From Geosiphon pyriformis (Eukaryota; Glomeromycota; Glomeromycetes; Archaeosporales; Geosiphonaceae), in assembly GCA_016748015.1 (NCBI GenBank), contig JAAOMT010000661.1, positions 124,001 to 188,000 on the forward strand: a DNA stretch of 64,000 nt, read 5' to 3'. The notes under the pieces were generated by a model. That model saw only the letters and a list, made by a program, of their open reading frames with translations. It did no database searches and was not told the DNA's origin. Both the position numbers and the translations under genes were made by a program. The first letter of the stretch is position 1. Each line of letters begins with the position of its first letter. Positions 1 to 51,553 of the stretch are shown piece by piece.

Positions 1-2277
1 TCCATTTCAAGTTTCGGCCATGTTTTAGTAAGAATGAAATTTTTTAATAATGAGCAAAATAATTGAAGTGTAGATGCATGTTCTTTGAACCAGGAAATCT
101 TTTTGACTTACAAGGGTTATTGATGCAATAAGACATTTATTTCCGAAAAGTGAATATCTTAAAAGAATGCAGCAACCATTACTTTTAAAAGTGTAATACT
201 TTTAATTCATGCATGTGAATTGACAAATAAATGAAATTATTTCATTGATATTCCTTTTTTTTGTTCATAAAGCTAATAATTATGTAATTTCAATAAGGTT
301 TCATTCAGAAGTTACTCAAAACTAACAATAAAATTTTTAGCAGCCTTCTTGATCTTATTTAAAGATTGGTTTTAAATAAATAAATATATATATATATATT
401 ATAATTTGTTAATAATAGTTTGAATTATATTTAATAAAGCTGAAATACCCTTGCAGATGGTAATACAAAATTGTTGTTTAGAATAACTCAGTAGAAGATT
501 TGAAATACTAGTTTGTAATGTTCTTAAATTTGAATGAAAAACTATTGAATTAATAAACAAATTAAAATAGAAAGTTATACAAAATTATATTAGCAAACGT
601 TTTTTTATTCATTCAAAAAATATTTTAGATTCACAATATATTATTTTTGTAATAGTCAATTTTAATTTATAAAATATTTATATATATTTTGTTTTTTTTT
701 ACCCTATTGACAACCACATTTATGGCAAGATTTCATTTTAATCGTGTTTCAGCATTTTCTAAAATTGTCTTTTATATTAAAAAATTTAAGCCACGAGGTA
801 ATAATCTACTATTTACGAGTTTCAAAGAAGTATGTCATTTATTAATTTGAGTTTTTGAGTTAACTTTTTTGGTCAAAACAAATTTTACCTTGTTTTATCT
901 TTTATTTTGTTGAAAAAGTTATAATATTTAGATTTAAATCTTTTTTATCTCAATTTAGATAAATCTCTTTATTTCTTTTACTTGAAAATTTTTAATAATC
1001 TTTTAGATAATTTAAAAAATCTTTGTAAAAAATTATCTTAGATTTATAGGGTATCAGAATTAAATTAGAACCAAACCTAAAGATACATGTATATTTGAAA
1101 TTGATATAATGTTCAACAACTTATATATCCTTAATAGAGGCTGCTTCATTCTAACCATGGATAAAAGAAATTAATTAACTATATTTCTTGAATAATGTCA
1201 TATAGTTATCCTATTGTTTTTATTAAAATTGATCATCGGTAGTATAAAAACTAAGCTATTTTAGATATGACGTCTATGAACACAATGAACAAAAAAATCC
1301 AAGTTTGGAAAGATTTCACTCAAAGATATTTTTGCTGATAAACTGTAAAAATTTCCAAATCACCTTCAAACCATAAAGAGGCAAGCTTAAAAATTTGAAA
1401 TGATATCTGATTATGACCGATTAGAATATCAAGCCAAAGTTTAAAATATCTTGAAAAACTTATATGTCAAAATCTTGTTATTACATGTATCAAGGTGTAT
1501 GAAAAATTTCTTTATTGGAATGAATGAGCCCAAGTAATCCTCACCAAGCGATCCAAATTTCTTTTCCTTATAGAATTTCGGATAAGAGATAAATTTTAAC
1601 TGGGCCATTTGGTATGACTATAGGTAAAAACGCCCCCACTTTAATCTTTATAGGATAAATTCATGAACACTAGTATAATTCAACCAATTTAAATTTTAAA
1701 AGTTAAAAATTAGTTTACCTGATTTTGATCTATATATTTTAATTACTTAGGACTCATTTATGACACAATTAAACTTGAATATCCATGTATATTGCTTTAT
1801 GTATTTGAAATATAAAAAGATCTAAAAAAGGTTAATAGGTATCAAAAAGCCTGTGTTTGAGATTTTTCTCAATAGTGGGATAAATGTAAGTCACGTTATG
1901 CTAAATGATTGCGATTTCCATAAAAAGTTTAGTCGCATTAGATAAAAATGATGAGGTCTATTACTTTCGGCCATTTTTCAAAATTTAAAGTCCCCTTTCA
2001 AGAAGCATGGCTACTTTAACTCTTTTTTTGATTTTGATTTTTCATTTTGCTCAATATTTCTGATTTTATTCTTACTAAGCATTACGAATAAATCAACATT
2101 TGACGAACCCCGCGGTATGAAGGGTCCGAGAAACTTGTTAAAACTTAAATTTATGCTCGCGAGTGTTAGAGTATTTATAGGCACACAATATTGCTAACTT
2201 TTCGTTGCTTCATTGTTCTTGTGTTTTCAGGTATAAACTATCCATTCCTAAACATTAAATTATACTTAAAAAAACTC
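1..2277. other. AT-rich intergenic region
   Basis: No convincing gene is seen. It contains a short TA run near 385-400 and long A/T homopolymers. The sequence near 24-60 and the reverse complement of about 2045-2085 share an imperfect motif (AGTAAGAAT followed by GAGCAAAAT), which could be the ends of an old decayed element, but the similarity is short and weak. Confidence 0.5.
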
Positions 2278-2928
2278 ATGGAGAATTTTTCCCAAAATGG
2301 CTTTGAAATTTCTTCCTTAAAACCGCCTTTTCCCCCACGCATTACATCAGAGGAATTATTTTCAAATGCTGTTACAAAACTGAAAGAAACAGGAGAAATC
2401 CAAAAAACTCCAAATGCCTTTTTTGTTTATTCAAAGGTTTTCAGAAATCATATAAAGACAAATACTAATTTCTCTAAAATGCCTATACAATCAAAAATTG
2501 TCGCGAGGCTTTGGAAACAAGAGCCAGATTATGTAAAATTAAAATATAAACAACTTGCCAATGAAGCAAAAAATCAATTTCGCAAATATTCGGAATCTTC
2601 TCATCCTCTACAAAATATTTTTCATTATGTGCCCCCTCGTCCTGCTGTAAATAATGTGACTTCTGAAAACAGTCATTCGCAAGAAAATATTTCAACTTCC
2701 ATAGAACCAATCCAGAACCCAGTTAGCATTCAGACATCCCCTCTGGTTCAGCCTAATGAAATTCTCCCTCAAACTAATCAAATTAATACACCATACCTAT
2801 ATTTTTTATATGAACCTTTATATTTACAATTTATTTCAAACCAGCACCCCTATTTTACCTTCTATACATCTTCGAATGCTCCTGAACCCGATCAAAATCA
2901 ACCCGAAGGGTTTGAACCTTTTTCTTAG
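2278..2928 (+). CDS. HMG-box protein (MATA_HMG-like)
   Basis: Single-exon gene of 216 aa. An upstream in-frame TTG at 2191 would add 29 residues, but ATG 2278 is the natural start because it places MENFSQNG before the conserved PPFPPRITSEELF segment. The HMG box runs over about residues 45-108: it opens with KTPNAFFVYSK, has the helix-2 segment with KIVARLWKQEP and closes with YKQLANEAKNQF. The tail is rich in Asn, Pro and Gln with no recognised domain. HMG boxes of this type bind DNA by bending the minor groove, and the fungal MATA class includes mating-type regulators; in mycorrhizal fungi the family is hugely expanded and mostly of unknown function. Four other intact copies and one broken copy lie in this window. 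The family call is firm; the biological role is unknown. Confidence 0.85.
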   Translation: MENFSQNGFEISSLKPPFPPRITSEELFSNAVTKLKETGEIQKTPNAFFVYSKVFRNHIKTNTNFSKMPIQSKIVARLWKQEPDYVKLKYKQLANEAKNQFRKYSESSHPLQNIFHYVPPRPAVNNVTSENSHSQENISTSIEPIQNPVSIQTSPLVQPNEILPQTNQINTPYLYFLYEPLYLQFISNQHPYFTFYTSSNAPEPDQNQPEGFEPFS

Positions 2929-8985: not shown

Positions 8986-11394
8986 TTCCCGAATATTACT
9001 TAATTGGGATTAGTCCGATCGATGAAGCGGCAGTGTGAGCTCGTGATTGAAATGAATGATGATCGTATATCTTATATGATTTTATGCATTTAATTAAGAA
9101 TTGATTAATTCCAAAAAAGATACTAAATGACAGTAATTTTTTGGAAATTTCGAGAGCTTGTTGCAATTTCACTTTTGTGATTGAAAAAAAATAGGACATG
9201 AATGACTAAGTAATTGAGACTGCAAAAAATAAGAAGATATAATAACTTTAGTGATTATTAAATTATTATATCCTTTACATATGCAAATAATGAAAGTTTG
9301 TCATATTGGGAAGTCTTTTCGTTATTAAAATGAAACCGAACCAAATTTTTAAAAAAGATGAACCTTGTTATGCCATATAATTTTCCTATAATGGACCAAA
9401 AATTTCTGTTTTTTAATTCACCTACCGCGCATCATTCATTCATTAAATAGAGTTCAGAATACGCCAAATGTGTTGCACAAAGTTTCTAACAATATAGTTA
9501 ATTAATGGGATTACCTGAGTACCAATTAAACTTTCACTTAATGATTTCCTACGTGTGAATTTAAACTTTAATTTTGTCACAATGCAATTCTAATTTCCTT
9601 TTTCTTAATTAGAATGGCAAGTGTTCAAAAAATAAAATAAAATACATAAACTGAATCAAATGGGTTTTTCCTGGGGTTCATTTGTTTATTATTCGGAGTT
9701 TCTAAATCTAAATTAAAAATTCTCCGTGATGACGCAAAAAGCATAACTGAGACAAACAATATGACTATTAATTATGACTTAATTTAATTTAAGGGTTGCA
9801 ATTCCCCAAATCTAAGATTGGCACTTTTCTAAATTAAACGCATTGTGAAAAAAAAAGATTTTAACAAAATATTTTTCCAAAGGTAGTGTTAAACTCTCTT
9901 CAATATTATTATTATTATTATTATTATTATTCTTTTCGCATTTGACACTAAAAAATTTTAAGGCATGTATAGTTATTCAAAACGTAACACTTTTTTCCAA
10001 AATTTATATTCGATTTTATGTATCACCAAGGATTCTCACAATTCTTGATGACGTTATATATACCATTTATAATTTTTATTCCACAGCAAGAGAACCAAAT
10101 TTAAGTTTTAAGAGGAATTCTCTTCTCAAGCATATCAAAAGTTAAATATATTTTTCAAGTAGCATTTCAATAGTTTAGTATATATGAAAACCTTTTTGCA
10201 TATATTATAAAAGATAACTTTTAAAAAATTTCAAATTATAGTCTAATTAAAGATAATCAAAAGTATTCTGAATTGATATAGTGACAATATGAATTTAACA
10301 AGAATGAGGAAACAAATTGGCCTCTAGATTTTACCACTTCTAGGAAAGCAGAACCACCATACAACACTGTTTCTTTACAAAACTTTTAATTCCCAAATTT
10401 TTTAAATTTGTTTCTCCTAATATTTTAGAAACTCAAAAGAATTCTTTACCCTTGATAATAATAAAAATATTGATATAATTTCTTAGTAAAAAAAATTAAA
10501 TTTATTTTTGAATAGATTCAGATTTATTCAATCGAAAACTAAAATAAAAATATTTTAAGCAAAAAAACTAAATTAGTTAGTAATAAAATGATTAACTTAC
10601 AATTAAAGCAAATTTGATTGGTCTTCCTCTTTAATGAGAATTCTAAAATTATAATTCGAAACCTGTTTTATTTAGTTTATCATCTATTTGAATGTTCAGT
10701 GCCTGTATCTGGCCATTTTTGTACCTAGGTACCAGATTATCATTATTGAACTGTAATGCTCATATACAAATTATTTTAAATTGGTAATTTGGATATAGTC
10801 TCATTTATTCAGTGTCAATGGGCTACTAAGTTAATGAAAATGATGACAAAATTAATATAATGACTATTGCTTGTAAGGGAGGCTCTCATTGGTAGAGACC
10901 CATAGATAAAATATAAAAAAAAGTTGCCTTTTGTTAAGAAAGATGACCGACTACGTTTGTTAATAAATAATCTACATTCAACCATTGCCTAAAAAGGTCC
11001 CATAGAGGGTTTCACAAATGTCAAATACCGACTATTTTTGAAAGTTTATGCAGGGAAACTAAACCTAGTTTCCAAATTTCCAGGGACTATTACCACGCGA
11101 TTTCCCATTTGCATTAGAAAAAATTAAGATTTACAAATACCCCTTTTATTTTTGAAATAAATTTTTTTGAACCAATTAAAAAATATATATTCATCCAAAA
11201 TATCAAGGGGGAATTTTGTGAAATTTCAAACATGAATAAATATGAGGCTTTATTTCAGTTTGAAATAAATGATTTAAAGCATCCCACCCTTTAATAATAA
11301 AATTACCGACTTTTCTTCTTTCTTTTATTTCACCTGATATTGAATAAAATTACTTAATACATACCTACTCTTTGTTAAAACCCTCTAATCAAGA
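8986..11394. other. AT-rich intergenic region
   Basis: No gene is recognised over about 2.4 kb. A (TTA)n microsatellite lies at 9905-9931. A 67-codon frame at 9942-10145 has no family features and is not called. The last few hundred bases form the upstream region of the HMG-box gene at 11395. Confidence 0.4.
9905..9931. repeat. (ATT)n microsatellite
   Basis: About nine uninterrupted trinucleotide units of TTA/ATT. Confidence 0.95.
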
Positions 11395-12546
11395 ATGAAA
11401 TCTAGATCATTGGAAATTTTGAAAAATCATAGCTGTGTTTTAGTAAAGCAAACATGTAATGGTTTATTTTCAATCACAATTAACATCAAGATCGGATCAA
11501 AACCTATACTACTTGAAGCAGAAATCTTCAACATCTCAAAATTTGTGTCGCGATGTCAAACAAAAATTAGTCCCAATTCTTTCCTTCTTTATCGTATGGT
11601 CGTCCAAGAGGCTGTTAATCTGTCAGGGTATTGCATTGAAAGGAAAGAGGTTTCCCAAATCGCGAAAGAAACCTGGAAAAATTCTGATTGGCTCAAATCA
11701 CATTTTAAGTCGGTGTTCATGAAGGTTAAGGAGGCTTTGAAGACAGATCCGAGTCGTTTTATCGCCGAAAATCCTATTGATGGAAGTAGAACAGTAATTG
11801 AAAAAAGTACCCTTTCTCATGATGCTTCATCAATTGAAAGTATAAATAGTCAATATCTTGTGCCCGACTTCATAATTTCTCAAAGCGAAAATTCTTTGAA
11901 TTGTCCATCAAACCAGTTTTTCAGCCCACCCTACACCCCAAATTCTTTTGACTCGAAAACTTCTTTGATTGTACCCACGGAAGAATTTTTGAATATGCCC
12001 ATGTATTGCATTGAAAGGAAAGAGGTTTCCCAAATCGCGAAAGAAACCTGGAAAAATTCTTATCGGCTCAAACCACATTTTAAGTCGGTGTTCATGAAGG
12101 TTAAGGAGGCTTTGAAGACAGATCCGAGTCGTTTTATCGCCGAAAATCCTATTGATGGAAGTAGAACAGTAATTGAAAAAAGTACCCTTTCTCATGATGC
12201 TTCATCAATTGAAAGTATAAATAGTCAATATTTTGTGCCCGACTTCATAATTTCTCAAAGCGAAAATTCTTTGAATTGTCCATCAAACCAGTTTTTCAGC
12301 CCACCCTACACCCCAAATTCTTTTGACTCGAAAACTTCTTTGATTGTACCCACGGAAGAATTTTCGAATATGCCCATGGAAGAATTTGTTCAAATTCCCA
12401 ATCAAGCTTTGCAGTTATATCCAAAATTTTTTACTCTAAAAAATCCTATCTATGGGAATAAACTAGTAATTGACACTGAAATTATTTGTTCTCCGCCCGT
12501 TATACCATCACAAAAGGAATCTCAGCACTTTCATCCTATTTATTAA
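11395..12546 (+). CDS. HMG-box protein with internal 125-aa tandem duplication
   Basis: Intact 383-aa frame, ATG at 11395. Residues about 60-118 form a divergent HMG box: it begins ISPNSFLLYRMVVQEAV, continues with EVSQIAKETWKNSDWLK and closes with FKSVFMKVKEALKTD, matching the PNAF...YR / W / Y-KQLA pattern of the other HMG genes here. The second half of that box plus the following tail (125 aa; nucleotides 11629-12003) is repeated immediately in frame (12004-12378). The second unit has only box helices 2-3 and lacks helix 1, so it is unlikely to be a complete HMG domain. The unique C-terminal tail follows. The gene is clearly a member of the expanded mycorrhizal HMG family, altered by a very recent duplication; its function is unknown. 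Confidence 0.8.
   Translation: MKSRSLEILKNHSCVLVKQTCNGLFSITINIKIGSKPILLEAEIFNISKFVSRCQTKISPNSFLLYRMVVQEAVNLSGYCIERKEVSQIAKETWKNSDWLKSHFKSVFMKVKEALKTDPSRFIAENPIDGSRTVIEKSTLSHDASSIESINSQYLVPDFIISQSENSLNCPSNQFFSPPYTPNSFDSKTSLIVPTEEFLNMPMYCIERKEVSQIAKETWKNSYRLKPHFKSVFMKVKEALKTDPSRFIAENPIDGSRTVIEKSTLSHDASSIESINSQYFVPDFIISQSENSLNCPSNQFFSPPYTPNSFDSKTSLIVPTEEFSNMPMEEFVQIPNQALQLYPKFFTLKNPIYGNKLVIDTEIICSPPVIPSQKESQHFHPIY
11629..12378 (+). repeat. 375-bp in-frame tandem duplication (2 copies)
   Basis: Copy 1 is 11629-12003 and copy 2 is 12004-12378, directly abutting, 375 bp = 125 codons. By eye only five bases differ, and all five change the amino acid: D to Y, W to R, S to P, L to F and L to S. No indels were seen. 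Confidence 0.95.
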
Positions 12547-13300: not shown

Positions 13301-15131
13301 ATGTCAACCCAAACCATTAATGGCACTTTTCAGTTTTCGTATCCACCTATTCTCATAGTTGGCCAAACGGGCAAGTAGGAAGTGATACATTGCATATGAA
13401 GAAATTTTAGGAAATTAACACCTTTTAATTAAGGCGTTGGAAAAAGTACTTTGGGAAACTTACTTCTTGGCCTTGACCCAAGTAATGGATATTTTTTAAC
13501 GGGTGATTCTGGGGTATGGAAAATGTATGTGCATTTCGATAATCTTCGCGGCTTAATCAGCTTTCAAGCTTCCATTTTAACAGGATTCAGTAACCACAGC
13601 TTGTCAAACTGCCTGCCTGAAAATTGATGAACAAAATTTTACGCTAATCGATACCCCAGGTCTCTTTGAAATCGGAATGAGCAACGCCGAAAATTGGCGG
13701 AAAATTACGAATAGCCTCAATCATTGTGCCTATGGAGTAAAGGCAATTCTTTTTGTCATGCGTATGTCTCCTAATAGCAAGTTTTTCCTTTTATATGAAA
13801 TAGAGAAAAAAAATTCGATTTTTTAAATATCCTTGAAAACAGGTGCAGGAAGATATTCCATTATCCAAGATTTCATTATTGAGGGAATTATTAATAATTT
13901 TGGGCTTTATTGTTTGGATCATGTAATCATTGTCTTCTCCAATTGCACTCGACTTCAAACCGAGGACCGGCAGAAATTTTTCGCGGGACTCAATGAACGT
14001 CAAAAACGTTTAATCAAAAAAGTTGATAACCGATATTCAATTTTCCCAAATCCTGATATTTACTGGCCAGACAAATACGAGATCATTGAAGAAAATATCA
14101 GGATCCTTAAAAATTTTATTTTAGCCATTCGAGGTCATTATAATCATAGAATTTCCCGGATAATTCGACAAGCGTGTACTACCCAAAATGAAACGCAAAC
14201 TATCGAGGTTCAACAGGCAATTTATACATATGAAGACAACTTAAAAATTATGACACCTGATGAAGCATGGTCTCATTTACAGAATGATATGAAGCGAATC
14301 TTTCAAAATTCTACAAAAGAGAATTTTCCGGAAAGTCCAGATGGCAACGATAATTCAAAAGCTATTCCCGAGGTCTTTCTCCCGGACAGCGACAAATCTG
14401 GCTGTTTTTCCCTTTCGACACAAGTCATTCTTGAGAATGGGAAAGCCATAAATATGGAAAAGCTTAGAGTTGGAGATAAAATTTTATCTCAAAGTATGGA
14501 TGGAAAATTGGAGTTTTCTGAGGTCTATGTCATCCCTCACGCCGATTATGATACTCCAACTGAATTTTTGGAAATTAAATTTCTTCTGCCGCAATTGAAG
14601 GGCAAGTTTCACGAAACTATATAATGATTTAAAAAAGGAACTTTTCAGATACTAAATTTTGATTTTTCCACAGGTATACGGCGACTTCTGGTAACTTCTG
14701 ACCATCATATTTTGGTTGATGGTGATAAGTTTCGATATGCGAACGAAATCAATCCAATGAAAACAACTCTTTTGGCTTTAATGGATGATGAATTGGACCG
14801 AGTTCGAGTGCTCAGCCTTAAAAAGGTTAAAAAGCCTTTTTTAGTCATGTTTTATTTTCAAATTAACTTATTTGAATATATTTAGGTTATCCGTAATGGC
14901 TATATTTCCGTTTTTACTCGTTGTGGTACTATAATTGCTGATGGAATCGTGTGCTCTTGCTACAGTTACTGCTATCCGTATCAAAACATGATTCATCTTT
15001 TAATCGAACCTCTTCGATTATATTCAAAGCTCTTTAATTTGAGTGCTTCAAAGGGCTCTCCCCATATCTATCTCAAGGGGCTAAAACTAATTTATGACGG
15101 ATCAGTAAAATTCTTGAAAACAATTAGTTGA
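13301..15131 (+). CDS. GIN1: GIN1: AIG1-type GTPase fused to a Hedgehog-type (Hog/Hint) autoprocessing domain
   Basis: Six exons by eye: 13301-13370, 13434-13513, 13584-13761, 13843-14601, 14674-14825 and 14886-15131, giving 494 aa. N-terminal AIG1/IMAP-like GTPase: P-loop GQTGVGKS (21-28), switch SVTTACQ (52-58), DTPGLF (73-78), and the family RAGR motif (110-113). From Cys297 a Hog domain: GCF splice site with catalytic Cys297, T-x-x-H block (Thr370, His373), and C-terminal GTIIADGIVCSCYS with Cys438. In Hedgehog proteins this module cleaves before the Cys through a thioester and can attach a nucleophile such as a sterol to the released N-terminal part. All key residues are present, so self-cleavage releasing the GTPase is plausible. 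No cholesterol-addition region is recognised; the domain is short (198 aa). The layout matches GIN1 of Glomus mosseae (from memory). Introns 1 and 4 appear to use GC-AG sites. Confidence 0.9.
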
Positions 15132-15503: not shown

Positions 15504-17147
15504 TTATGCAATATTAAAGAAACTTGTAAGATTTGTTTGTTTTTGTACATCTTGCATTCTCTTATGAAGTATACGTTTAACATGAGCAAGCTTACTAACT
15601 GCATCATAAAATTCCATGCTATTTTCAAGCTCCATAAACTGTTCAAGATTTGTAATAGCAGTTAGTGCATCCTTAATACTCATTACTTTCTGTACTTCTT
15701 GTTCTTCATCAGAGCTATCATGCTTTGTTTCACGATTTGTTATAATATAATTTGCAATCTCATCATCATCCAGATGTTCCAAAGTAATTGTATCATTTTC
15801 TTCAGATAGATTTACCAACCCTTCAATTGATAAGTATGTACGATTTGGCTGTATGCAATTGAACTCTTTGTAGCAATCCTTAATTTTTTCTAATACTATC
15901 TCTTGATTATAATTAGCTATTATTTCCAAGTTTGTAGCTTCATTCTGAAAGTTGTCATTTGTATTGATTGGAAGAATGCCAACTTTGTGCCAGCAATAAG
16001 CGATTGTTTGATTTGAAACATTCTCCCATGCCCTATAAATTAGACGCATTGCTTGAAGTTGGTTAATTGCATAAATATCATCTGCACCATCATCAAAAAG
16101 ATCTAATACATGGCGAAGAAAATAGCGACAGTAATGTGCCTTAAAACAATGAATAATTCCAGCATCCATAGGCTGAATATGTGCTGTTAAGTTAGGTGCA
16201 AACCGTTCTACATGAATATTTGTAATAGATCTCATATCATAGTTGTGACCAGCAAAATTGTCTACTAACAACAATATTTTTCGGTTTTTTTTATGCAGCT
16301 GATAGTCCCAATCAACAAGCCATTGTCAAAAAATATCACCAGTCATCCAAGCACGAGTGTTTGAATAATATTGGAAACCAAGTTGCTCTCCTGTTTTTTT
16401 TTGAAAACAGTGTGGACGTTTAGCATGACCAATAATAAGTGGTGGCAAATGCTCGGTTCCATTAGCATTGGTTGTAAAGGCAAGTGTCAGTCGCACTTTT
16501 GATTGTTTGGTGCTATGACGTGGTATTGTAGCAAGACCTTGATTTGGTGATATGGCATAAAATAGTGCAGTTTCATCCATGTTGAAAATATCGTATAACT
16601 TCCAATCAGCAAGAAGTGTTATTACACGCACTCACTCATCTTCAATATGCTCAACATTGGCTGATGATCCATCACCATGAAAGCGAAGTGAACGCAATCC
16701 AACATGGTCTTTAAAGCTCTCAAGCCAGCCATTGGATAGTTTTTGGCACTCATTTTCTGGAATATCCAATTGATCATAGAACTTTATGCCAGCAGCTCGA
16801 ATTACATCTCCAGTAAGTGTCATTCCACGCGATTCTGCCTCTTGAACAAAAATAACAAGTGCTTTATCAAAGTCAGGATTACATACTGTGCGTATACACT
16901 TGCTAGTCAAGTCATGCATTGTATTTGCTCGTGCATGAAGATTTGGTTCATCTTTGACCCAAGCCGAAACTAGAGGCTGTTTCATGTATAGAAAACCGTT
17001 TTCCTTAAAGTGCCTTGCAGTTTTTGATTGGTTTTTATCATTTGCATAATACCAATCAAGCACCATAAGCTTATCATGAAGTGTAGCATTCTCACGACTT
17101 TGCAGAACGCAAGCTGAAGAGATAGCATGCTTTTTGCTATTAGGCAT
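15504..17147 (-). pseudogene. Tigger-like transposase (DDE, CENP-B-type HTH) with two nonsense codons
   Basis: One continuous frame from ATG 17147 to 15504 (547 codons) broken only by TGA at 16634-16632 and TGA at 16328-16326; there is no frameshift. N-terminal half: helix-turn-helix/CENP-B-like DNA-binding region (for example QSKTARHFKENG and LVSAWVKDEP). Catalytic DDE_1 core: NMDETALFY (first Asp), LLLVDNFAGHN (second Asp) and QPMDAGIIHCFK (third Asp). The C terminus QTNLTSFF fits the PCNA-interaction (PIP) motif known from pogo transposase. Both TGA codons could come from CGA by a single C-to-T change: the first follows EDE and the second follows TGDIF, where related transposases have a basic residue. 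Apart from these, the protein looks full length. Confidence 0.9.
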
Positions 17148-17202
17148 GGTGGAATCAAAAGGCAAAGGAAAAGTACGATTAGGATGAGGCTGATCCAAAA
17201 AT

Positions 17203-17460
17203 CCGACTTGATTACTCACACAATTGATAATAATTTAAAACTTGGAACAATTCGAAACTCTGATTTGATTACTCACACAATCAATAATAATTTAGAACTT
17301 GGGACAATTCGGAACTCCGACTTGATTACTCACAAGGTTTGTAATAATTTAAAACTTGGGACAATTCGAAACTCCAACTTGATTACTCATACAATCGATA
17401 ATAATTTAGAACTTGGGACAATTCGAAACTCCGACTTGATTACTTACACGATTAATGATC
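17203..17460. repeat. 57-bp tandem repeat inside the Tigger element
   Basis: About 4.4 units of 57 bp, each containing a GACTTGATTACTCA-type start and an ACTTGGGACAATTCGAAACT-type end. The array lies just upstream of the transposase start codon and happens to be open on the plus strand as a 19-residue repeat; that reading frame is probably a by-product. It could be a subterminal or promoter array of the transposon. Confidence 0.9.
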
Positions 17461-21035: not shown

Positions 21036-24000
21036 TCAAGTGGTTTGATTATCTCCAAGCCATTGCAACAGCTTTTCTTTGAGCTGTAAAAGTTTAAGCG
21101 GTTTCGTTAAATAATCATTCATTCCACTCTCCAGGCATTTATCCCGAGTGCCTTGAACTGCGGAAGCAGTCAATGCGATGATGGGTATTTCAGATTTAGG
21201 TGGCCCCAAAGCACGAATTGCCTTCGACGCATCGAAACCGGACATAACTGGCTATAATATACATTTAAAATGCTCATTAGAAAATTGCAAAGTTGGGAGG
21301 GTTGGAATAAAAAAAGTAGCAATTACCATTGCACAATCCATTAGAATCAACGAAACTCTATCGGATCCAATGGAAGAGTCAAGATCGCCTTGCATAAGGT
21401 TTACGGCCTCTTGGCCGTTAGTAGCCGATAAACATTGGTACCCAAGTTTAGAAAGCTGATGTTGAATAACCTAGATAAATAAAAAAACAAAATATGAACA
21501 TTATCAAACATATGATGGATGAAAGTTCTTGTGACATAAATATTTTTTATAAAATAGGAACTTGGAGCACTGACCTTCAAATTAATAGGGTTATCTTCCT
21601 GCATGTCAAATTTGAGTTAAATAGTGAATTTTAAGATTCTTGGTCAAAAATAATTAAAGGACAAAATACGTACAACACATAATATACATCTTGATTGTGA
21701 GACAGCACGAGTTCGAGATTTATGATGTGTTTCAGGCTGGTCCGAGTCTTGAGCCTCACAAGAAGCCGACCTCTTACTTGGTGGCCTCTGGGATACATCC
21801 TTCAATGCTTTTGTTGGAGATTGTTGATCAGATGAGGCATTAGTTGATGAGGTGAGAAGTGTCTCACGAATCATATCCACGTCAATTTCAGAATTATTTT
21901 TCGCCTCCTTTAGCTCGGTAGTCGTATTTTTGGTCATCGTAGATTCTTGACTACTGCTTGAAGGAGTTGGTCGGTTGTGTTGTTCATAATCGTCAATTCG
22001 GAATCGATTAATAGAAAATCCGACGTTTGACTTGAGTTCAGCCACCTCAGTGGAATTGAATATTTCATTATTATGCAAACACTCCAACAATCTTCTCTGC
22101 ATGATAGGTTTGCAAATTGCAGCCGCATTTCCTCCAATCTTTCGGATTAGTTCTTTACCAAGAGCACGACCACACACGGACCAAAATACTAATAATCCAA
22201 TTGTCAGATTATTCTTTCCACAAATAGAAATGAATTCTTTGGCAGATTCCAAAACTTGCTCGGCATTCTTTTCAGTCACATTAAAAAAAACCATATCACA
22301 TGGCGATTTATGGTATTGCTGATGCCAAGCTTTTGCTGCCATAATTGCTTTGGAACAATCACTAAATGCCTCTACTTTTTGAACGCTAGGGCTTAACATT
22401 GCCGACATAGCAGATCGAGCAGTTTCAACTGGGTCTATTATGATTACACGTTTCGATTTAACTATGGCAGGTACAGCAAATAATGCTTCACCAGTTGCTA
22501 ATTGAGAAGGTGATGTCAATGGAGTGGCCGAAAGGGTGAGGGGTTCTACGTTCCAGGTGAACCAGAATCGACTGCCTTTTCCTAATTCACTCTGTACCCC
22601 TAAATCACCTCCATTAATTGACACTAAATGTTTACAAATTGAGAGACCTAAGCCAGTTCCATCCTGTCGCCTAGTCATTGAAGGGTCACCTTGTGAAAAA
22701 CTTTCCCAGATATCTTTCATGAAAGCTGGATCAATTCTAATAAAGAATTGAAAATAAAATTATGTTTCAAATATTTCATAATTGATAGGTTTGAACTAAA
22801 TCCCAGTGTCCTACCCAATTCCAGTGTCAGTCAATTCGACAAGAAGAGTGCCAGTTTTGACGATATTTGGTTCTGTATCAGCTCCTGTTTCTTTAACTTG
22901 TACATCGGATGAAGCTAAAGAAATTTTAAGCACGATTTCACCAGACTCGGTGAATTTCACACTGTCAAATGAGAAGTTATTTTAACAATTTCGATATGTA
23001 AAATAAAAACTATTGGCTGGGTTTGAGAATACTTACGAATTCGATAATAGATTCATGAGAATTTGTTGTAATCTATAGGTTTGTTTTCGTAATGGTCAGC
23101 ATTTAGGACTCAACTTCTCAAACTTAAATATCAAAAGAAAAAATTTAGATGGCAAGACTTCGTACCTTTCAGGATCAGACTTTACATATTTTGGCAGTTC
23201 AGTTGGTGCAAAAAGCAACACCAGTTCAATTTGCTTGGTGCCAGCCCGTTCGCCGAAAATTTCAATAGTTTTTTCCACGAGATCAAATAAATCAAAGGTT
23301 CGATTCATCAGCGTGATTTTTTGTGCTTCAAGTTTCGCGGCGTCCAAAATATCGTTTACAACGGAAAGAACCACATCAGAAGCACGTGTCATTATTTCAA
23401 CCATATCCCTTTGATCCGAGGAAAGAGGGGTATCTTCAAAAGCTGATAGTACACCAATTATTGCTCCTAAGGGTGTACGTAATTCTGATTTGAAGTTGAG
23501 AATTATGAGTAAATGCTTTCGATGTTAAAGGTTTGCTTGAAAATTGAAACGCAAGACTTCAAAGATACCATGGGAGGTATTGGCCAGAATTTGGCTTTTA
23601 GCCTCATTTGCCGCCTTGGCCGCTTCCATTTGCGCTTCACGTTTTAGTTTTTCTTCGGAAAGTTTGGAATGGGTGATAGCTAAGCTGATTTGATTGGAAA
23701 TCTGTTGCAAAAAAATCTTTTCTGCGTTGGACCAATTCTCATTGGGCTTTCGATGAGCAACAATCCAGCCCCAGAAAGAAGAATTCAGGCGAATAGCAAC
23801 TGACATTGAAGATACATGCTGATTAAGAATTTGGGAAAAATAATTTTTGTGACTTTCGATTTCCAAATCAAGAATATCATTATCGGTGTCTCCTATGTTT
23901 AAAAATGAGGGTAACTCATTGTTTACAGGTGCTGTTTGTTCCTGTAAGGCTCCGGTGAAAGATGCTAAAAATGATGAAAGCGGATAAGCTGGTGAATTGA

Positions 24001-27000
24001 CATCAGATGAGCCATCCAATTGGTCACCCCAAGATTCTTTAGAGTCAATTGCTTTACAAGAGATTTGGGTTCCAACCAAAGCTTGAATTTCGGGGTCAAA
24101 AGCTGAAGCTGCCATTATCTGTGCCGACCCTTTATTCATTGGATCACTAAAAAGGACAAGTAATGATTCACAGACTAAAATTCGATGAATTTCTTCAACC
24201 GCCGTCGATAAGATTTCTTTAATATTAAATCCGGAACGAATTTTGCTGCTAATAGAGAATAGCAATTGTTTGGTTTCAGCTTGAGAACGTTGTTGAACCA
24301 CCAATTCATGGCGAAGATTAGATAATTTAATATTGCTTCGTACACGAGCAATCAGCTCACGAGCATTAAAAGGTTTGATCAAATAATCATCAGCCCCTCG
24401 CTCCAATCCTTAAAATAAAAGTAAAGCATTTTTACAAGCTTAGATACTAGTGCTTTGAAATAAAATTTTTATGAACAAACCTTCGACGCTAGCCTCTTCA
24501 CCAGCTCGAGCCGATAAGAGAATCACGGGAATCATTTTAGTTGATGGATCCGAACGTAGAATTTTTAATAACTCAAAGCCATTCATGTTAGGCATCATAA
24601 TATCTATTTTTAAGTGTGTAAATAAAATTATCAATTTACATAATCAAGCAAAAATTCAAATTTTAACTATGATATTAACCGCTTAACACAAGATCGGGTT
24701 TTATCTCATGCTTAGTGATAATGTTAAGTGCGTCACGGCCGTCAGTGGCACTTCGCACCTCAAATTCTGTTTTTAAGATGTTACAAAGATAGTTTCTAAT
24801 CGGAGAGAGAAATAATTAGTCAATAAAAGCTTTGGCGTTACTGATACATCGAATCATAAAGGATATTCGATATCTTAGGATTCAAATACCTCATATCAGC
24901 ATTATCATCCACAACAAGAACACGTTTAATTCTGTTCGGATCACTTCCGAATTCTTCTAGTAAAAATGGAGATCGAACATCCTTAGCGGCGCCTAACGTT
25001 GGTGAAGCGATCGATAGAGTCTTCAAATGTTCAATTGTGTTCTTAGCTTCGTGATCGTCTTCCTCAAATTTAGTTTGGAAACCTTGGGAATCATGTTTTT
25101 CCGTATTCCATTGTTTACATTCCTCCAAATACAAATCGACATTTCTAGAAAACTGATTTTCCCGAAGTGATGGTATCGGATATTTCGCGTTTCCTTCTCT
25201 AATACCATTAATGTAAACATTTTTCCTAGGCAATTGATCATATCCGGTTGGTATCCATACTCGGAATGTAGTGCCAACATCAACTTCTGAAGTGACACTT
25301 ATATCTCCTCCGTGACGAATTGCTAATTCTTTAACTAGAGCAAGACCTATACCTGTGCCTTCATGACTACGGGATTGATGCGACTCAATTCGATAAAACC
25401 GTTGAAAAATATTAGGTAGATGCTCTGGGGAAATCCCGACACCTTGAAATTTGAATTAGATGAAGTATTTGTATGAATGGTTAAACTTTATCAAAAATTT
25501 ATATATATAAGAATATAGACTTATAAATTGGATAATTTTACCTGTGTCAGTAACTTCTAATATAACAACTTCTCCACATTCCATTTTGTCAGCATAAAGC
25601 CGAATGGTAACCCCTCCATCCCAGGTATATTTGAAGGCATTTGAACCTAGGTTGACATAGTAGTTTTGTGTGAATATGTATTTTCTATTATCCCAGAAAC
25701 TTTTTTATCAAGAGTAAAAAACTTACATAGGTTAAATACAATTTTTTCATACAAATCCAAATCCAAATAGACTTTGTGTTCCAACTGAAGTTGCAGCGTT
25801 TCATTGCTGGGAATGTCTAAAGTAAATGTTAGGCCAAAAGATTTGGCCATGCTCTCAAAGTTGGAGGCCAATTCGGTGGTGACCTTCGCAATATCTGTTT
25901 CACAGTAATGAGCTTCAAGACGACCTGCTTCAATTCGTGAAAACTTTATAGATCGGGAAAGACGTTACATCATGGCCGAATATAATCAAGAGTGATAATT
26001 TATTATGTCAATAACTAACCTGTAAGAGAGTATTCACTAATTTTAGTAGTCTTCTCGCATTACGTTGAATCATTTTCAAATTGTAAAGAATCGGTGAATC
26101 GGGTGCACATGAAGAGATTGCATCCTCCAGGGGAGCCAGCATGAGTGTAAGTGGAGCTTTGAAAACCACACATTTTTGGTGTAAGCAATTTTTCAATTGG
26201 TGAAAAATCAATAAGACACACTCTAATTTTTGAAATTAAAATATTACTTCGCAATTCGTGGCTAATATTTTGGAAAAACATTATCTTTTGACGATTAAGA
26301 TCGGCTAAAGTTTCTGCCTGCTTTCTTTCTTCTTCACGTGATCTTCCATTAGTTAGGCTAGAACTGACGTGGCCAACAACGAGCTGGGAAACAAACAAAA
26401 AGGATTAATTTTCAAATTTTATTTTCCCGAAATTCAAGCTTACTGACCTGGCAGAATTCCAAGTATTCTGTGTCTAACGCTCGGCGTACATTAACTCCAC
26501 ATATTAGGATTGCGGTTAAAACGGTTTTCCCAGCAAACGATGTTAAAACGGGAAGAAGTATTGCTTGCGATTTGTCAGCAAGTGTGACAAGTACATGTTG
26601 GTTTGTTCGAATCACTTGCTCAATAGGCCACGATTCAGGAGTGAACGAGGAAAATGATGATTTTGTTAAACTTTCTGTCTGTGTCAACGAGTCTGAAGAT
26701 TGTAACTGCGATTTTTGATCCATCTCATTATTTTTTGATTTTTGAATATCTTTTAAGAAAGCTTCCATCGCATTAGTAACATTTAAAACATGATGTGACT
26801 TTGGTAGCTGATCAGGTAAATTTCTTGAAGATTTTCCCGTAACAAATATTAATTCTTCGACTCCATCATCACCGGATTGGGTATGTAGATTATCATCAAA
26901 AGTGGTAGCAGTCAAACGAGCCACATAGGTTTGGTTATCTTCGCCTGCTTCATTCTTCCCGATGAGATATATGAGGGCATAGGTGATGTCGGCATTATTA

Positions 27001-38076: not shown

Positions 38077-38874
38077 TCATCCACTCAGATTAAAAACTGA
38101 TAATAGCATTTCCAGGTAAGATATTCTGTCTTGAAGTTCTGCAGTAGGGTCTGATAACAATTTCAGACCTTGAACTTGTAGCAGTTTATCAACAAAATTC
38201 TCCAAAAGAGCAACTCGATTTTCCAAGTTTTGAATCACTGAATTATTTTTCAAGAGAGAAACTTGATTTTCCATGTTTTGAAACCCTGAATAATTTGCCA
38301 ACAGAGCAACCAACGTTCCAGGAAACTCATAAGTTTCACTAGTAAGTGAATTTTCACGAATTGTTTCAGAGGTAATGGGAAAATTGTCGTTTTGAGGAAG
38401 ATGGTTATTCATTTCTGGATTACTCAATTGAATAGGACTTCCATTTTTTTTCGATATTTGAGATAAATAGGAAGATTGCATTGGGTGAAGAAACTCCCCG
38501 ATTTGTGAAGAATCCGTCTTGTCTGGTACTTGGAAATGGCGAATTGGAAATAATGTTTGACAAATCTCATTAAATCGAACTTGGGCCTCAAAATGAAGTT
38601 CGTTGTATTTTGTCTTAACATGAAGTTTTTCCTTTCCCCAAAGGACCGACGCATAGGATGCCAGTGCACGCATTTTTGTAGCTCCAATATTCCTTTTAGT
38701 ATATTCTTTTCGGAGGGCCATTAAGTATATCATGAATGCATTAGGAATTTTCGAAACTTTCCCAGCTTTCTCAAGTTTTTTAACTGCATTAAAAATTATA
38801 TCTTCAATTAAAACTTGAGGTGGAAAGGAAGGTCGTCGAATATAGTCGATTCTGAGAGAATTTAAATTGGACAT
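38077..38874 (-). CDS. HMG-box protein (MATA_HMG-like)
   Basis: Intact 265-aa protein from ATG 38874; the frame is open 20 codons further up to a TTG, which is a less likely start. An N-terminal RPSFPPQVLIEDIIFNAV segment precedes the HMG box at about residues 40-105 (IPNAFMIYLMALRKEY, then ASYASVLWGKEK, then YNELHFEAQVRFNEI), the arrangement shared with the other HMG genes of the window. The C-terminal 100 residues include two imperfect copies of an N-LEN(Q/R)V(A/S)LL heptad-like segment and a final leucine-rich stretch that could form a short coiled coil, suggesting dimerisation. DNA binding is expected; targets are unknown. It shares its C-terminal style with the 42852-43649 gene, so those two may be closest relatives here. 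Confidence 0.85.
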   Translation of the reverse strand: MSNLNSLRIDYIRRPSFPPQVLIEDIIFNAVKKLEKAGKVSKIPNAFMIYLMALRKEYTKRNIGATKMRALASYASVLWGKEKLHVKTKYNELHFEAQVRFNEICQTLFPIRHFQVPDKTDSSQIGEFLHPMQSSYLSQISKKNGSPIQLSNPEMNNHLPQNDNFPITSETIRENSLTSETYEFPGTLVALLANYSGFQNMENQVSLLKNNSVIQNLENRVALLENFVDKLLQVQGLKLLSDPTAELQDRISYLEMLLSVFNLSG

Positions 38875-41800
38875 TCTCTGACAATTTTGGAGGGTATAGA
38901 CAGAGGAGCTTTCGTTTAATAATAAATTACCCAATTTTAGAGGATTAAAACTGGACCCTGGTAAAAAAAACTTTCCAGCAAAATGTCTCTATTTATAAGA
39001 TACAGGCTTAAAGTCCAAGAGTTTATCGGAAGAATTTTACCTGGTTTTAAAGACCAAATTAGGTCTCATAAGGTATTTTGTCGCGTTCAATTATTTCTCT
39101 CGGAAATCGAAACTTTATTTTCACGTACTATATGACGTGAGATTTATTAAAATTGGAATTTCTAAGAATCTGAAAACTCTTTCTAATTTCAATTGTTTTC
39201 GTCACAAGAGCCTATAATTAAAATTTTATACATAAACTTTTAGGAAACCATTTTAAAATTTTCAAAAGAAATCCGTAGCTCTAAATGAAGTTTCTAAAAA
39301 GCTTTTCCCTTGTTATAGGTAGGATAATTGATAAAATTGAAAATATCTATGCAGACAATGGGAAAATTATGTCACAAAAGGCGATCGCAATGAAAAGATT
39401 TCATTGTTCGGGTGTGGCTGTGCGTTGTAGACAAGATTGAATTTACCAAAAAAGAGTTGGTGATTGATTTGATCCCACATGTTCAAATACGATTTTATTG
39501 TATTTATCAGTGATAAAGTTAGAAAAAAAAAATATCAATTTTTTTTTATTTGAATCCAGTTATAGAATTAAAAGTTCTAAAATTATCAAAGTATTTTTAA
39601 ACTGTCAACATTTAAAAAGAAGTCAGCTTTTTCTTTAATTTAAGGGCAAATTAAGGTAGCGGATATGATTAATTTGGCAATCCCAGAGAATCTCTCAAAT
39701 AGGATACATTTTTACACTATAAGTAAAAATATTTTCTGTGCGTTCTTTATTTTTTTTTTAATCTAAAATTTTTAGTATGACATATTTATTGATCATAATG
39801 ATCATGATGAAGAAAAATCTAAAAAAGAAATAAGAAAATAAAAGTTTCAGAGGAAGCCTTAGCCTAAAAAAGGAATTCATGAATGGAAAATACTACGAAA
39901 ATTTTAAGCATGATTTTTTATCAAGTACAATCGTGAAGCTGAAACTCAATCTCGTTGAAATTATAAAGTTAGTAAGGTAAGATAAAATGTATTGTCCATA
40001 AATGTGCTCCAAAGTAAAAAGATCAGCAGATGACATTTATTATTTTCAACAAAGGTGCTTAGGTAATTAATTTTTTATTTTTGGTCACACATTTTTATAA
40101 AAACCATTTTTCGATTTTCTTCAAAAATATTTATTTAAAATGAAAGATTAAATATGCTCAGAATAAAATTTTAATTTCAAAGAAATTTATTTTTTATTTT
40201 AATACGAATTATTATCTAAAAAATCTATAAAAAATAATCATTTGTATACAAAAAAAAAACTTGAACATTTATTTCCAAAACCATTGAAGAATGTTTATAA
40301 AATTTTTTATTCGTGTTTTGAATCTCTGAGAGAAAAACGATTACTACGTTCCTAAATTTAGCTATGTTCAAAAAAAGTAATAAATTCATTTGTTGTCTAT
40401 TATATTGTTTGAAATATATAAATTTGGGTTTGTGAAAAAAAAAATTTTATTTGTAATTGATTAGTAAAAATTTATCAGATTGTAAATTTTTTTTTAATAA
40501 AAACAGGAAACCGTTTTTCGTAAAATTAAACGATTTTCATCTATTAAAATAGAAATAATAGTAAATTTAATATTTTTTCATCCATTAAAATAGAAATATT
40601 AGTAAATTTAATATTTTTTTCAAACCCATTTTAATCTTGTACACTACTTAAAATGAATTACTTTTTTCTAAAAAAAAAAAAAAGATTAAGACGAGCATTA
40701 CTTAAATCAATCCTTAATTAAAAATTTATAAAATAGTTTTTTACTTTGCTAGCATTCTATTTTATTCCCAAAAAAAAAAGAAACTATCTTATGATTCAAG
40801 AGTTCTTTTTAGAAGACAGGCTTTCATAAGAAAGATCATCTTTAAGCTAACAATTAAGTAAAATTCTCATTATATATTTTTGTATGTTGAACTTTTCATT
40901 ATGCAGTGAGCTATAAATAAGTTTATTAAGTCTGGTGTCACAATTTGGTAGCCAATAGAATCTAACTAATTCTCTACAATTAACCCTTTTTTTCGGATAA
41001 ATTTTCTGAGACTATATTCATCGGAAAGTATAATTTTAAAAATTAAACTACCACTTTAGTGAAACATACTACACTTCTATTCATTTTAAAGATTAGATTT
41101 TATCAAATCTCATGATAGGCTAAAAATAGCTTCAAAGGTTTTTATGGTCTTAAAAGTAACAATCCATAAAGGATTAATCCGATATTCTAATTTCGAAGGT
41201 GTTTTTCAATTTATTTAAAAAAGTAAAATAAAGGTTTATTTACCTCATAAAATCTCTTATTATCGATCAATTTTATTGTGAAAAGGTAAAAACCTTATAT
41301 TAATATCATACTTTTGTGCTCATAACAATATATTAATCTGACATTTGAAATAAAAAGCAAATTACAGTACCCACATTAGTTTTGTGTTGAAGAAAAAGCT
41401 AATCAGAGTGATTATAGAAAAATTGAAATTGCTTTTTGGGAAATTCCTTTAGTCTTAAGTAAACCTTTTTTTAATATAAAGTTTAATCACTTTCGTAACT
41501 CATGAACCGAAAATCCGGAAAATCTTTTCCCAAGGAATACATATATGCTATAATACAATGTATGAGAGCAATACTCTTTGTTTTCAATCTATCCCCAAAT
41601 ATTGGGTATTTATTAAAACTTTTATTTAATAAATTGAACCAAACAGAATCGTTCAATTTTTACTTCAAGATGAATATTTCTCTAAAATTTCCGAATATAT
41701 TCTAAAGAATTAATATTTTGAATTTCACTTGTTAAACTTTTATGAAAATTCAATCATCTCCTCGTTTGACAGTAAGGTTTATTAAAGTAAGCCATTAGAA

Positions 41801-42851: not shown

Positions 42852-43649
42852 CTAATTTTCATCTTGTAAAAGAATTAATAAGATATTCTCTAGGAATGAA
42901 ACTCTTTCTTCAAGATTTCCCGGTGGTGGAAACTTAATGAACCTCCTTTTTACAGCAAACAAAGATTCGATTGCGTTCTCGAGAATTATAATCCGATATT
43001 TCAATTGATATTCGTCATATTGTTTGGATATACTTTTTTCAGAAAGTATAGGAAAATTCTGAGAAATAATTTGAATTCGGCTTAGTTCAGGTGGAGAAGG
43101 AGATATCACTTTATGAGTTGTTGGATTTAAATGATTTTCAAATGAAAAAAAATTAGGATCATCGTGACTTTCAAAACCCATAGGTGATGAAGATCCCATA
43201 TTAAGTGAATCTTGCCAAATAATATTTGCTTTTCCATAAGGAAAAATCTCTTCAGTTGCTATACAATTATTGGAATTTTCATAATAAGAAGGAATAATTG
43301 GAGGTGTAGTAGCTTTTGATATTTCATCAAGTCTTTGTTGAGCCTTCATTGTTAGTTGATAATACACATCTTTAACATGGGTAGGTTCCTTCGTCCAAAG
43401 GTATCCGGCGACACAGGATAAATGGCGCATTGCAGGACGTTGATTTTTTTTAATGAATTCTTTTCTTACTTCTTTTCTATAAATTATAAAAGCGTTTGGG
43501 ATTCTTCCGAACTTTCCAGTTTTTTGAAAATTGATCAAAGCACTCGATATGAATTCGTCGATTGTCAAGTTGGTTGGAAACTTTGGAGAAAAGGTTTCAA
43601 AATTTTTATCCATATCTAAAGCTACTTTATTTGATTTAGAATCTGTCAT
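42852..43649 (-). CDS. HMG-box protein (MATA_HMG-like)
   Basis: 265 aa from ATG 43649 (an upstream in-frame TTG adds 15 residues; a downstream ATG 12 codons in is also possible). The leader FPTNLTIDEFISSAL precedes the HMG box at about residues 45-110: RIPNAFIIYRKEVRKEFI, then CVAGYLWTKEP, then YYQLTMKAQQRLDEI. The Pro/Asn-rich centre is low complexity. The last 60 residues (LKYRIIILENAIESLF ... LEERVSFLENILLILL) resemble the leucine-rich ends of the 38077-38874 protein, arguing for a shared origin and possible coiled-coil pairing. Reading frame intact. Likely nuclear DNA-binding protein of unknown targets. Confidence 0.85.
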   Translation of the reverse strand: MTDSKSNKVALDMDKNFETFSPKFPTNLTIDEFISSALINFQKTGKFGRIPNAFIIYRKEVRKEFIKKNQRPAMRHLSCVAGYLWTKEPTHVKDVYYQLTMKAQQRLDEISKATTPPIIPSYYENSNNCIATEEIFPYGKANIIWQDSLNMGSSSPMGFESHDDPNFFSFENHLNPTTHKVISPSPPELSRIQIISQNFPILSEKSISKQYDEYQLKYRIIILENAIESLFAVKRRFIKFPPPGNLEERVSFLENILLILLQDEN

Positions 43650-44034
43650 CGTCACTGAATGTTTTTTTTTTGTTTTCTGGATAAGGGTGTTCAAAAATTT
43701 CTTGACACTAATATGGTGTATTAAGACCTTTAATATTAATATTTGAATTAAAATTTTTCATAAAGAATTGAAGTAGTGTCATTTCTCAATCTCTCTCAAG
43801 CAAAGAGTTTTCTATGAACTTTTAAACATGTTTTACCTTTGGACACTTGATTGTTTATATATATTTTTTTTATGAGTGGGCTGTGGTGATTATTAGATCT
43901 TACAATAAAATTTATTTTAATTTTAAAATATAATTCACTCAACTTCTAATTCACATTTTATACGGAAACCTCGGATTTCATTGTCATTCCAAAATTGGAA
44001 ATTTTAAATAGTCCCCACGTTCTGTCGTTGGTTT

Positions 44035-51300: not shown

Positions 51301-51553
51301 CTCCCAAATCTAATATCTTTTTACCTTGTAATTAATGTTGTGAGTCGAGATCTACAAGAAAATGCGAGAATCTTCGTCTAAGAATATTAACTAATAACAA
51401 GTCCCTGGCTTTTCAATTTCTATAAAATTATATTTTGGGATAGTTTTCTCCAAATATATAAACAGCAAGATTTCCTTAATCAATTCATTACAATTTCAAA
51501 GCTATCTTTTAGATAATTTTTTGGTTGAAGATTTTCTTTTATTTCTCTAAAGA
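48349..51553. other. Gene-poor AT-rich region
   Basis: No gene is supported in 3.2 kb. A 153-codon plus-strand frame at 49916-50377 is very Ile/Phe/Asn-rich, as expected of random AT-rich DNA, and was not called. A perfect 6-bp-arm hairpin (GTGGCG ... CGCCAC) lies at 51180-51200, upstream of the HMG gene. Confidence 0.4.

What the first reader, a model, noticed from the sequence alone, without database searches (positions are those of the whole stretch)
13301..15131. Complete GIN1-type gene: AIG1-like GTPase fused to a Hedgehog Hint domain in a fungus
Seen: intact P-loop, switch and RAGR motifs, followed by GCF, T-x-x-H and a C-terminal SCYS, all in one spliced frame. Known: Hog domains autoprocess metazoan Hedgehog; a Hog-like C terminus was described from Glomus mosseae GIN1. 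Inference: the protein cleaves itself before Cys297, releasing and possibly lipid- or nucleophile-tagging an immune-type GTPase. This would be a non-animal use of Hedgehog chemistry on a GTPase, with a fungal sterol as a conceivable adduct.
Basis: partly seen in the sequence, partly recalled or inferred. Interest (0 to 1): 0.85.

Follow-up and report, generated by a model that had tools for sequence, protein, structure and literature searches.

The report
Fungal GTPase with Hedgehog-type self-cutting tail
This fungal gene encodes an immune-type GTPase joined to a Hedgehog-like domain that probably cuts itself off; the pairing is already known from related fungi and some animals, but here the domain has a histidine where animal Hedgehog has a key aspartate, which may change what gets attached to the GTPase.

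Summary
Six exons (13301-15131, +) give 494 aa with AIG1 (Pfam E 3.7e-28) and Hint (6.4e-21) domains. The domain junction lies in one uninterrupted exon, so two separate genes are very unlikely. Introns 1 and 4 are GC-AG. Catalytic residues align with Drosophila Hedgehog: C297 (C258), T370/H373 (TxxH), C438 (C400); but the general base D303 is His342. The engineered fly D303H keeps activity and accepts more sterols (PMC9163320, section 9). A first sterol-region helix motif (H-x4-P-x-R-L) is supported, with limits; the second helix is not. The GTPase's G4 guanine-specificity motif is degenerate.

The architecture is not new: GmGIN1, a family expanded in Glomeromycotina, coral, snail and amphioxus. 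I file it as a new member of a known kind. Two details may be new: the natural histidine, and an apparent single copy in this 124.7 Mb genome, though relatives could not be compared and the counts are lower bounds. Self-cleavage before C297 is likely but inferred; a sterol adduct is plausible and undemonstrated.

The parts
13301..15131 (+). whole AIG1-Hint (GIN1-type) gene, six exons, 494 aa, stop TGA 15129-15131
   Evidence: gene model; Pfam
13301..13370 (+). exon 1: start and first part of the P-loop
   Evidence: first ATG of an open stretch that begins at 13268
13371..13433 (+). intron 1, GC-AG (GCAAGT donor); the GT four bases further in would break the P-loop frame
   Evidence: and reading
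13434..13513 (+). exon 2: rest of the P-loop, up to the switch I region
13584..13761 (+). exon 3: SVTTAC switch region, DTPG (13650-13661)
13843..14601 (+). exon 4: rest of the AIG1 GTPase, linker, and about the first third of the Hint domain in one open frame
14400..14405 (+). codons of Gly296 and Cys297, the predicted scissile bond
   Evidence: codon positions; cleavage inferred
14538..14540 (+). codon of His342, aligned with the general base D303 of Drosophila Hedgehog
14602..14673 (+). intron 4, GC-AG (GCAAGT donor), inside the Hint domain
14674..14825 (+). exon 5: TSDH motif (T370 14694-14696, H373 14703-14705)
14886..15131 (+). exon 6: SCYS motif (C438 14958-14960) and the C-terminal tail with H-x4-P-x-R-L

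Best explanation
It is a GIN1-type AIG1-Hog protein of a fungus, probably of the Glomeromycotina. Shown: one spliced frame, an AIG1 GTPase domain, a Hedgehog-type Hint domain with its catalytic Cys, TxxH and SCY cysteine, a natural His at the general-base position D303, and a tail resembling the first helix of the Hedgehog sterol-recognition region. Inferred: Cys297 attacks the carbonyl of Gly296 (N-S acyl shift), His342 activates a nucleophile that resolves the thioester, and the freed GTPase leaves with that nucleophile on its C-terminal glycine. The likeliest nucleophile is a membrane sterol, which would tether a cytosolic GTPase to membranes, the job that hydrophobic tails do in some animal GIMAPs (recalled). 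Layers, my own estimates: membership of the AIG1-Hint architecture 0.97; self-cleavage at 296/297 about 0.7; sterol adduct about 0.35. The figure below is for cleavage with transfer to some small nucleophile.
For: Pfam AIG1 3.7e-28 and Hint 6.4e-21; solved relatives GIMAP7 3e-16 and Hedgehog 6TD6 2.1e-10; Hint part alone: 6TD6 5.6e-11, 6TYY 5.4e-9, 1AT0 1.1e-7. C258->C297, D303->H342, T326->T370, H329->H373, C400->C438 in a global alignment. D303H in the fly domain keeps structure, pKa and activity and widens sterol tolerance (PMC9163320, section 9 read). H-x4-P-x-R-L is reached in 144 of 400,000 shuffled tails; it covers human H374, P379, R381, L382, of which H374 and R381 are needed by alanine scan, L382 by its glutamate change, and P379 is invariant (PMC7242414, section 7 read). 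Tail against the fly sterol region: reached by 40 of 5000 shuffles.
Against: No cleavage, adduct, transcript or structure evidence. Tail against the human sterol region is no better than shuffles (2565 and 2376 of 5000); against the fly region with loose gaps 264 of 5000. HWY of helix 2 is only HIY, and an H-x-Y occurs in 81,994 of 400,000 shuffles, so helix 2 is not established; F377 is Ile. No hydrophobic N-terminal leader is apparent by eye (no predictor was run), so it may not enter the ER, where animal Hedgehog is processed. G4 of the GTPase is degenerate. The helix-1 motif was chosen after I had seen the alignment.
Confidence: 0.5

Rival explanations
1. The Hint domain cleaves, but by hydrolysis or a soluble thiol: it only releases the GTPase, with no lasting adduct.
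For: No leader seen by eye; helix 2 not established and F377 not kept; Hedgehog mutants lacking the sterol region undergo proteolysis without cholesterol (PMC7242414).
Against: H-x4-P-x-R-L motif kept; His at the general-base position is a known active substitution.
Confidence: 0.3
2. The Hint domain no longer cleaves and serves as a binding or regulatory domain of the GTPase.
For: General base replaced and GTPase G4 motif degenerate, so drift of the whole protein is possible.
Against: Nucleophilic Cys, T, H and SCY cysteine are all kept in a domain only 28-33% identical to the fly one in the parts that match; five introns splice to an intact frame.
Confidence: 0.16
3. Two neighbouring genes (GTPase and Hint) wrongly joined.
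For: No RNA evidence was available here.
Against: The second half of the AIG1 domain, the linker and the start of Hint are in one uninterrupted 759-nt exon, and the same fusion is in print for related fungi.
Confidence: 0.02

Closest known systems
GmGIN1 of Glomus mosseae (Burglin 2008, PMC2362128, passages read; original Requena 2002 seen only in a reference list)
   Same: N-terminal AIG1-like GTPase, C-terminal Hog domain with motifs J and K and a region like L, no signal peptide reported
   Different: its letters were not available, so identity to this protein and the residue at its D303 position are not known here
AIG1-Hint family (MEROPS C46) of Glomeromycotina, incl. R. irregularis (PMC8778642 and PMC6956056, passages read)
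   Different: described as hugely expanded; only one locus was found in this genome
AIG1-Hint proteins of coral (PMC3723955), snail (PMC7053062) and amphioxus (PMC12373286), passages read
   Same: AIG1 with C-terminal Hint
   Different: animal; amphioxus forms often add CARD, which Pfam does not report here
Hedgehog C-terminal Hog domain (PDB 1AT0, 6TYY, 6TD6)
   Same: catalytic Cys, TxxH, SCY motif, first sterol-region helix motif
   Different: no Hedge domain, His instead of Asp at 303 (as in the engineered 6TYY), short loop and unproven second helix

Membership tests
GIN1-type AIG1-Hint proteins | AIG1 domain followed by Hedgehog-type Hint in one protein | tested here: met
   junction inside exon 4
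GIN1-type AIG1-Hint proteins | closest relative by sequence is GmGIN1 or a paralogue | not testable with these tools
   outside PDB and the own genome no collection of eukaryotic sequences was on hand; GmGIN1 letters not held
Hog (Hedgehog autoprocessing) domain | nucleophilic Cys after Gly, TxxH, SCY cysteine | tested here: met
   G296-C297, T370/H373, C438
Hog (Hedgehog autoprocessing) domain | general-base Asp (D303) | tested here: not met
   His342 in the aligned place; D303H is active in the fly protein
Hog (Hedgehog autoprocessing) domain | sterol-recognition helix 1 | tested here: met
   H-x4-P-x-R-L in 144 of 400,000 shuffles; F377 is Ile; alignment to fly 40 of 5000 shuffles, to human 2565 of 5000, i.e. 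no support
Hog (Hedgehog autoprocessing) domain | sterol-recognition helix 2 (HWY) | tested here: inconclusive
   HIY only; H-x-Y in 81,994 of 400,000 shuffles
Hog (Hedgehog autoprocessing) domain | autocleavage and sterol ester | not testable with these tools
   needs protein
Hedgehog ligand | N-terminal Hedge signalling domain | tested here: not met
   not among the 21 Pfam families listed at E up to 10
Hedgehog ligand | signal peptide | not tested
   no predictor run; P-loop begins at residue 21 and no leader is visible by eye
AIG1/GIMAP GTPase | P-loop, DTPG, AIG1 conserved box | tested here: met
   GQTGVGKST 21-29, DTPG 73-76, RAGRYS 110-115
AIG1/GIMAP GTPase | G4 guanine-specificity motif | tested here: not met
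   NCTR (143-146) aligned with RKEE, RKDD, HKED, RKED of four GIMAPs
Intein | intein-type C-terminal end with a second extein | tested here: not met
   chain ends ...KTIS, 54 residues after SCYS; intein-associated model Hom_end_hint 14.3 bits against a cut-off of 32.1

The most novel reading that the evidence does not exclude
A natural counterpart of the engineered D303H 'base-swapped' Hedgehog: a fungal Hog domain with a broadened sterol taste that esterifies the C-terminal glycine of an immune-type GTPase with a fungal sterol, giving a membrane-anchored, sterol-tagged GTPase outside the secretory pathway.
Probability: 0.2. Interest if true: 0.78.

Novelty: new member of a known kind. Interest (0 to 1): 0.38.

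Why it matters
Whether Hog domains outside the true Hedgehogs transfer sterols looks open in the passages read (Burglin 2008 calls even the nematode case unclear). This locus offers an apparently single-copy test object with a specific prediction: His342 should permit processing with sterols that the animal Asp enzyme handles poorly. If true, sterol-tagging of proteins would be an older and wider reaction than the Hedgehog signal, and would reach a family of immune-type GTPases.

Tried and rejected
Paralogues. The own genome was searched with Pfam Hint (1 match), the Hint protein (three window matches and one at E 0.213), the AIG1 part (four window matches and five at E 0.166-0.426) and Pfam AIG1 (two window matches and one under the cut-off). 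I translated the frames of 7 of 7 weak loci. Pfam (3 of these 7): L012 is a reverse transcriptase, L017 an MMR_HSR1 GTPase (AIG1 19.1 bits, cut-off 27), L005 gives no family. By eye: L011 resembles L012; L010, L013 and L014 are broken by stops and unrecognised. L005 deserves a remark against my reading: its local alignment to the Hint tail (score 80) beat 2000 of 2000 shuffles (best 71), yet the genome-wide E is 0.213, it has no Cys at the SCY place, and the reading frames before it look by eye like a LINE-type retroelement (Pfam gave none for the one frame tested). I take it for the best chance match of a whole genome, not for a second Hint gene, but this is not proven.

Sensitivity control: the Drosophila Hog domain (28% and 33% identical in the parts matched) found two of the three Hint exons of the window gene, at E 0.158 and 0.483, and nothing else, so a paralogue of like divergence would probably have shown. 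The tool states that counts are lower bounds. Kinases (146 matches) and HMG boxes (118 matches) show that it reports large families.

So conservation of His342 across GIN1 proteins could not be tested.

Species: a Glomeromycota SSU primer site recalled from memory had 0 exact matches, which is against a glomeromycotan or uninformative if rDNA is not in the assembly; the SSU rRNA search did not complete. Genome size and G+C resemble Geosiphon pyriformis (129 Mb, 29.25%, PMC9453076, passage; own genome 124.7 Mb, window bins 21.6-38.0%), which is no identification.

Papers: AM-fungal sterols were sought (listing; passages on ergosterol) without usable result. That a natural His at 303 may be unreported rests only (listing) and the section and passages of PMC9163320; the primary paper (Zhao 2019) is not held. 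Passages only were also seen of PMC4695875, PMC5784728, PMC7490403, PMC4771724.

Structure prediction was not used: its stated rule takes proteins that the DNA gives letter for letter, and this product exists only after joining six exons; I did not send it.

Full report
OBSERVATION. Three introns are GT-AG, two (1 and 4) are GC-AG with the donor GCAAGT. The GT four bases further into intron 1 would break the P-loop frame; the GC donor restores GQTGVGKST. The open stretch 13827-14621 holds the second half of the GTPase, the linker and about the first third of the Hint domain, so the fusion does not depend on any splice choice. No RNA data were available.

DOMAINS. Pfam reports AIG1 (E 3.7e-28, 98.8 bits against a cut-off of 27) at 17-179 and Hint (6.4e-21, 75.4 bits against 29.7) at 293-468. 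Among solved chains the best are GIMAP7 (3e-16), GIMAP4, GIMAP5, GIMAP1, then Hedgehog 6TD6 (2.1e-10). The Hint part alone matches 6TD6 (5.6e-11), the engineered D303H Hint domain 6TYY (5.4e-9), wild-type Hint 1AT0 (1.1e-7) and Sonic hedgehog 7E2I (0.0015). That 6TYY and 1AT0 are the Drosophila D303H and wild-type domains is from PMC9163320.

CATALYTIC RESIDUES. A global alignment with the Drosophila domain maps C258 to C297, T326 to T370, H329 to H373, C400 to C438 and Y401 to Y439, but D303 to His342. The ungapped run SEV-x4-H against SEV-x4-D makes the register secure. In the fly enzyme D303 is the general base that holds the thiolate and activates cholesterol; the engineered D303H keeps structure, pKa and activity and raises activity on coprostanol and epicoprostanol more than 200- and 300-fold (PMC9163320, section 9 read). 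The fungal protein thus carries in nature what was made as a base swap in the laboratory. I saw no mention of a natural case in the passages read, but the primary paper is not held, so I make no priority claim.

ADDUCT REGION. After SCYS come 54 residues. PMC7242414 (section 7 read) reports that alanine changes of H374, F377 and R381 in helix 1 and of each residue of HWY in helix 2 strongly cut cholesterol transfer in cells, that glutamate at L382 or L386 abolishes it, that P379 is invariant, and that the loop between the helices is dispensable. The fungal tail has H-x4-P-x-R-L; this is reached in 144 of 400,000 shuffles of the tail (I chose the motif after seeing the alignment, though its residues come from that paper). 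The local alignment to the fly region is reached by 40 of 5000 shuffles with strict gaps and 264 of 5000 with loose gaps; to the human region by 2565 and 2376 of 5000, that is, no support. F377 is Ile, and HWY is HIY; an H-x-Y is found in 81,994 of 400,000 shuffles. So helix 1 is supported, with limits, and helix 2 is open.

GTPASE. P-loop, DTPG and the AIG1 box are intact, but at G4 the protein reads NCTR (143-146) where the four GIMAPs shown read RKEE, RKDD, HKED and RKED. Guanine specificity should be tested, not assumed.

COPY NUMBER. The window lies in a genome of 124.7 Mb in 406 contigs. Four searches found no other clear AIG1-Hint gene. Of seven weak matches, two are assigned elsewhere by Pfam (L012, L017), one gives no family (L005) and four were judged by eye only. 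L005 aligns with the Hint tail better than 2000 of 2000 shuffles, but it lacks the SCY cysteine and its genome-wide E is 0.213; I take it for chance, unproven. A query as distant as the fly domain found two of the three Hint exons of this gene and nothing else. Family C46 is described as hugely expanded in Glomeromycotina and absent from the other fungi analysed (PMC8778642, passage), so one copy is unexpected if this is such a fungus. Counts are lower bounds by the tool's own statement, and the assembly may be incomplete.

WHAT IS KNOWN. GmGIN1 was described as Hog plus AIG1-like GTPase without signal peptide (PMC2362128, passages). R. irregularis transcripts with both domains were reported (PMC6956056, passages). 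An Aig1 gene is up-regulated when two R. irregularis isolates share a root (PMC7490403, passages; its text holds no mention of Hint; PMC8778642 links C46 proteins to a putative mating response, apparently citing this paper). AIG1-Hint proteins are known from coral (four, PMC3723955), snail (PMC7053062) and amphioxus, where CARD+AIG1+HINT is said to be shared with a few fungi (PMC12373286). The finding is therefore a new member of a known kind.

MECHANISM. Best reading: N-S acyl shift at Gly296-Cys297, then attack on the thioester by a nucleophile activated by His342, leaving a C-terminally modified GTPase. Cleavage is likely from the conserved catalytic set; the nucleophile is undecided between a sterol and water or thiol. 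The sterol reading rests on helix 1 and on the behaviour of fly D303H; against it stand the unproven helix 2 and the lack of any visible secretory leader.

SURROUNDINGS. The neighbourhood holds HMG-box ORFs, a DDE/Tc5-type transposase remnant directly downstream and pieces of hybrid histidine kinases; 20 of the 30 ORFs of 110 codons or more listed were scanned. HMG-box matches number 118 genome-wide and cluster on several contigs, so their presence here is not specific to this gene. More than 100 HMG-box factors are reported in Gigaspora rosea and large families in R. irregularis and G. margarita (PMC4771724, passages), which agrees with, but does not prove, a glomeromycotinan source.

Noticed in passing
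2170-2925 (+), 38080-38988 (-), 42855-43757 (-), 51551-52831 (+), 62491-62859 (+): Five ORFs with an HMG_box match (38080-38988 is under the Pfam cut-off) in 64 kb; 118 matches genome-wide at E <= 0.001, four of them in this window, with more on contigs C207 and C283.
   Followed up: partly
11389-12543 (+): A 385-codon ORF just upstream with, by reading, a nearly exact internal tandem duplication of about 125 residues; no Pfam match.
   Followed up: partly
15507-17234 (-): DDE_1 and Tc5-type DNA-binding matches in separate ORFs: a transposase remnant directly downstream of the gene.
   Followed up: no
21647-25455 (-): HATPase_c, HisKA, GAF and a second HATPase_c in successive ORFs: pieces of one or two hybrid histidine kinases.
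   Followed up: no
13371-13433 and 14602-14673: Two of five introns use a GC donor (GCAAGT); whether GC-AG introns are common in this genome was not counted.
   Followed up: no
own genome, many contigs: Large protein kinase family: 146 matches reported, 597 first-look candidates of which 144 were scored.
   Followed up: no
L005:1471-1917: A frame that aligns with the Hint tail (score 80, best of 2000 shuffles 71) without the SCY cysteine; the frames before it look by eye like a LINE-type element; no Pfam family.
   Followed up: partly
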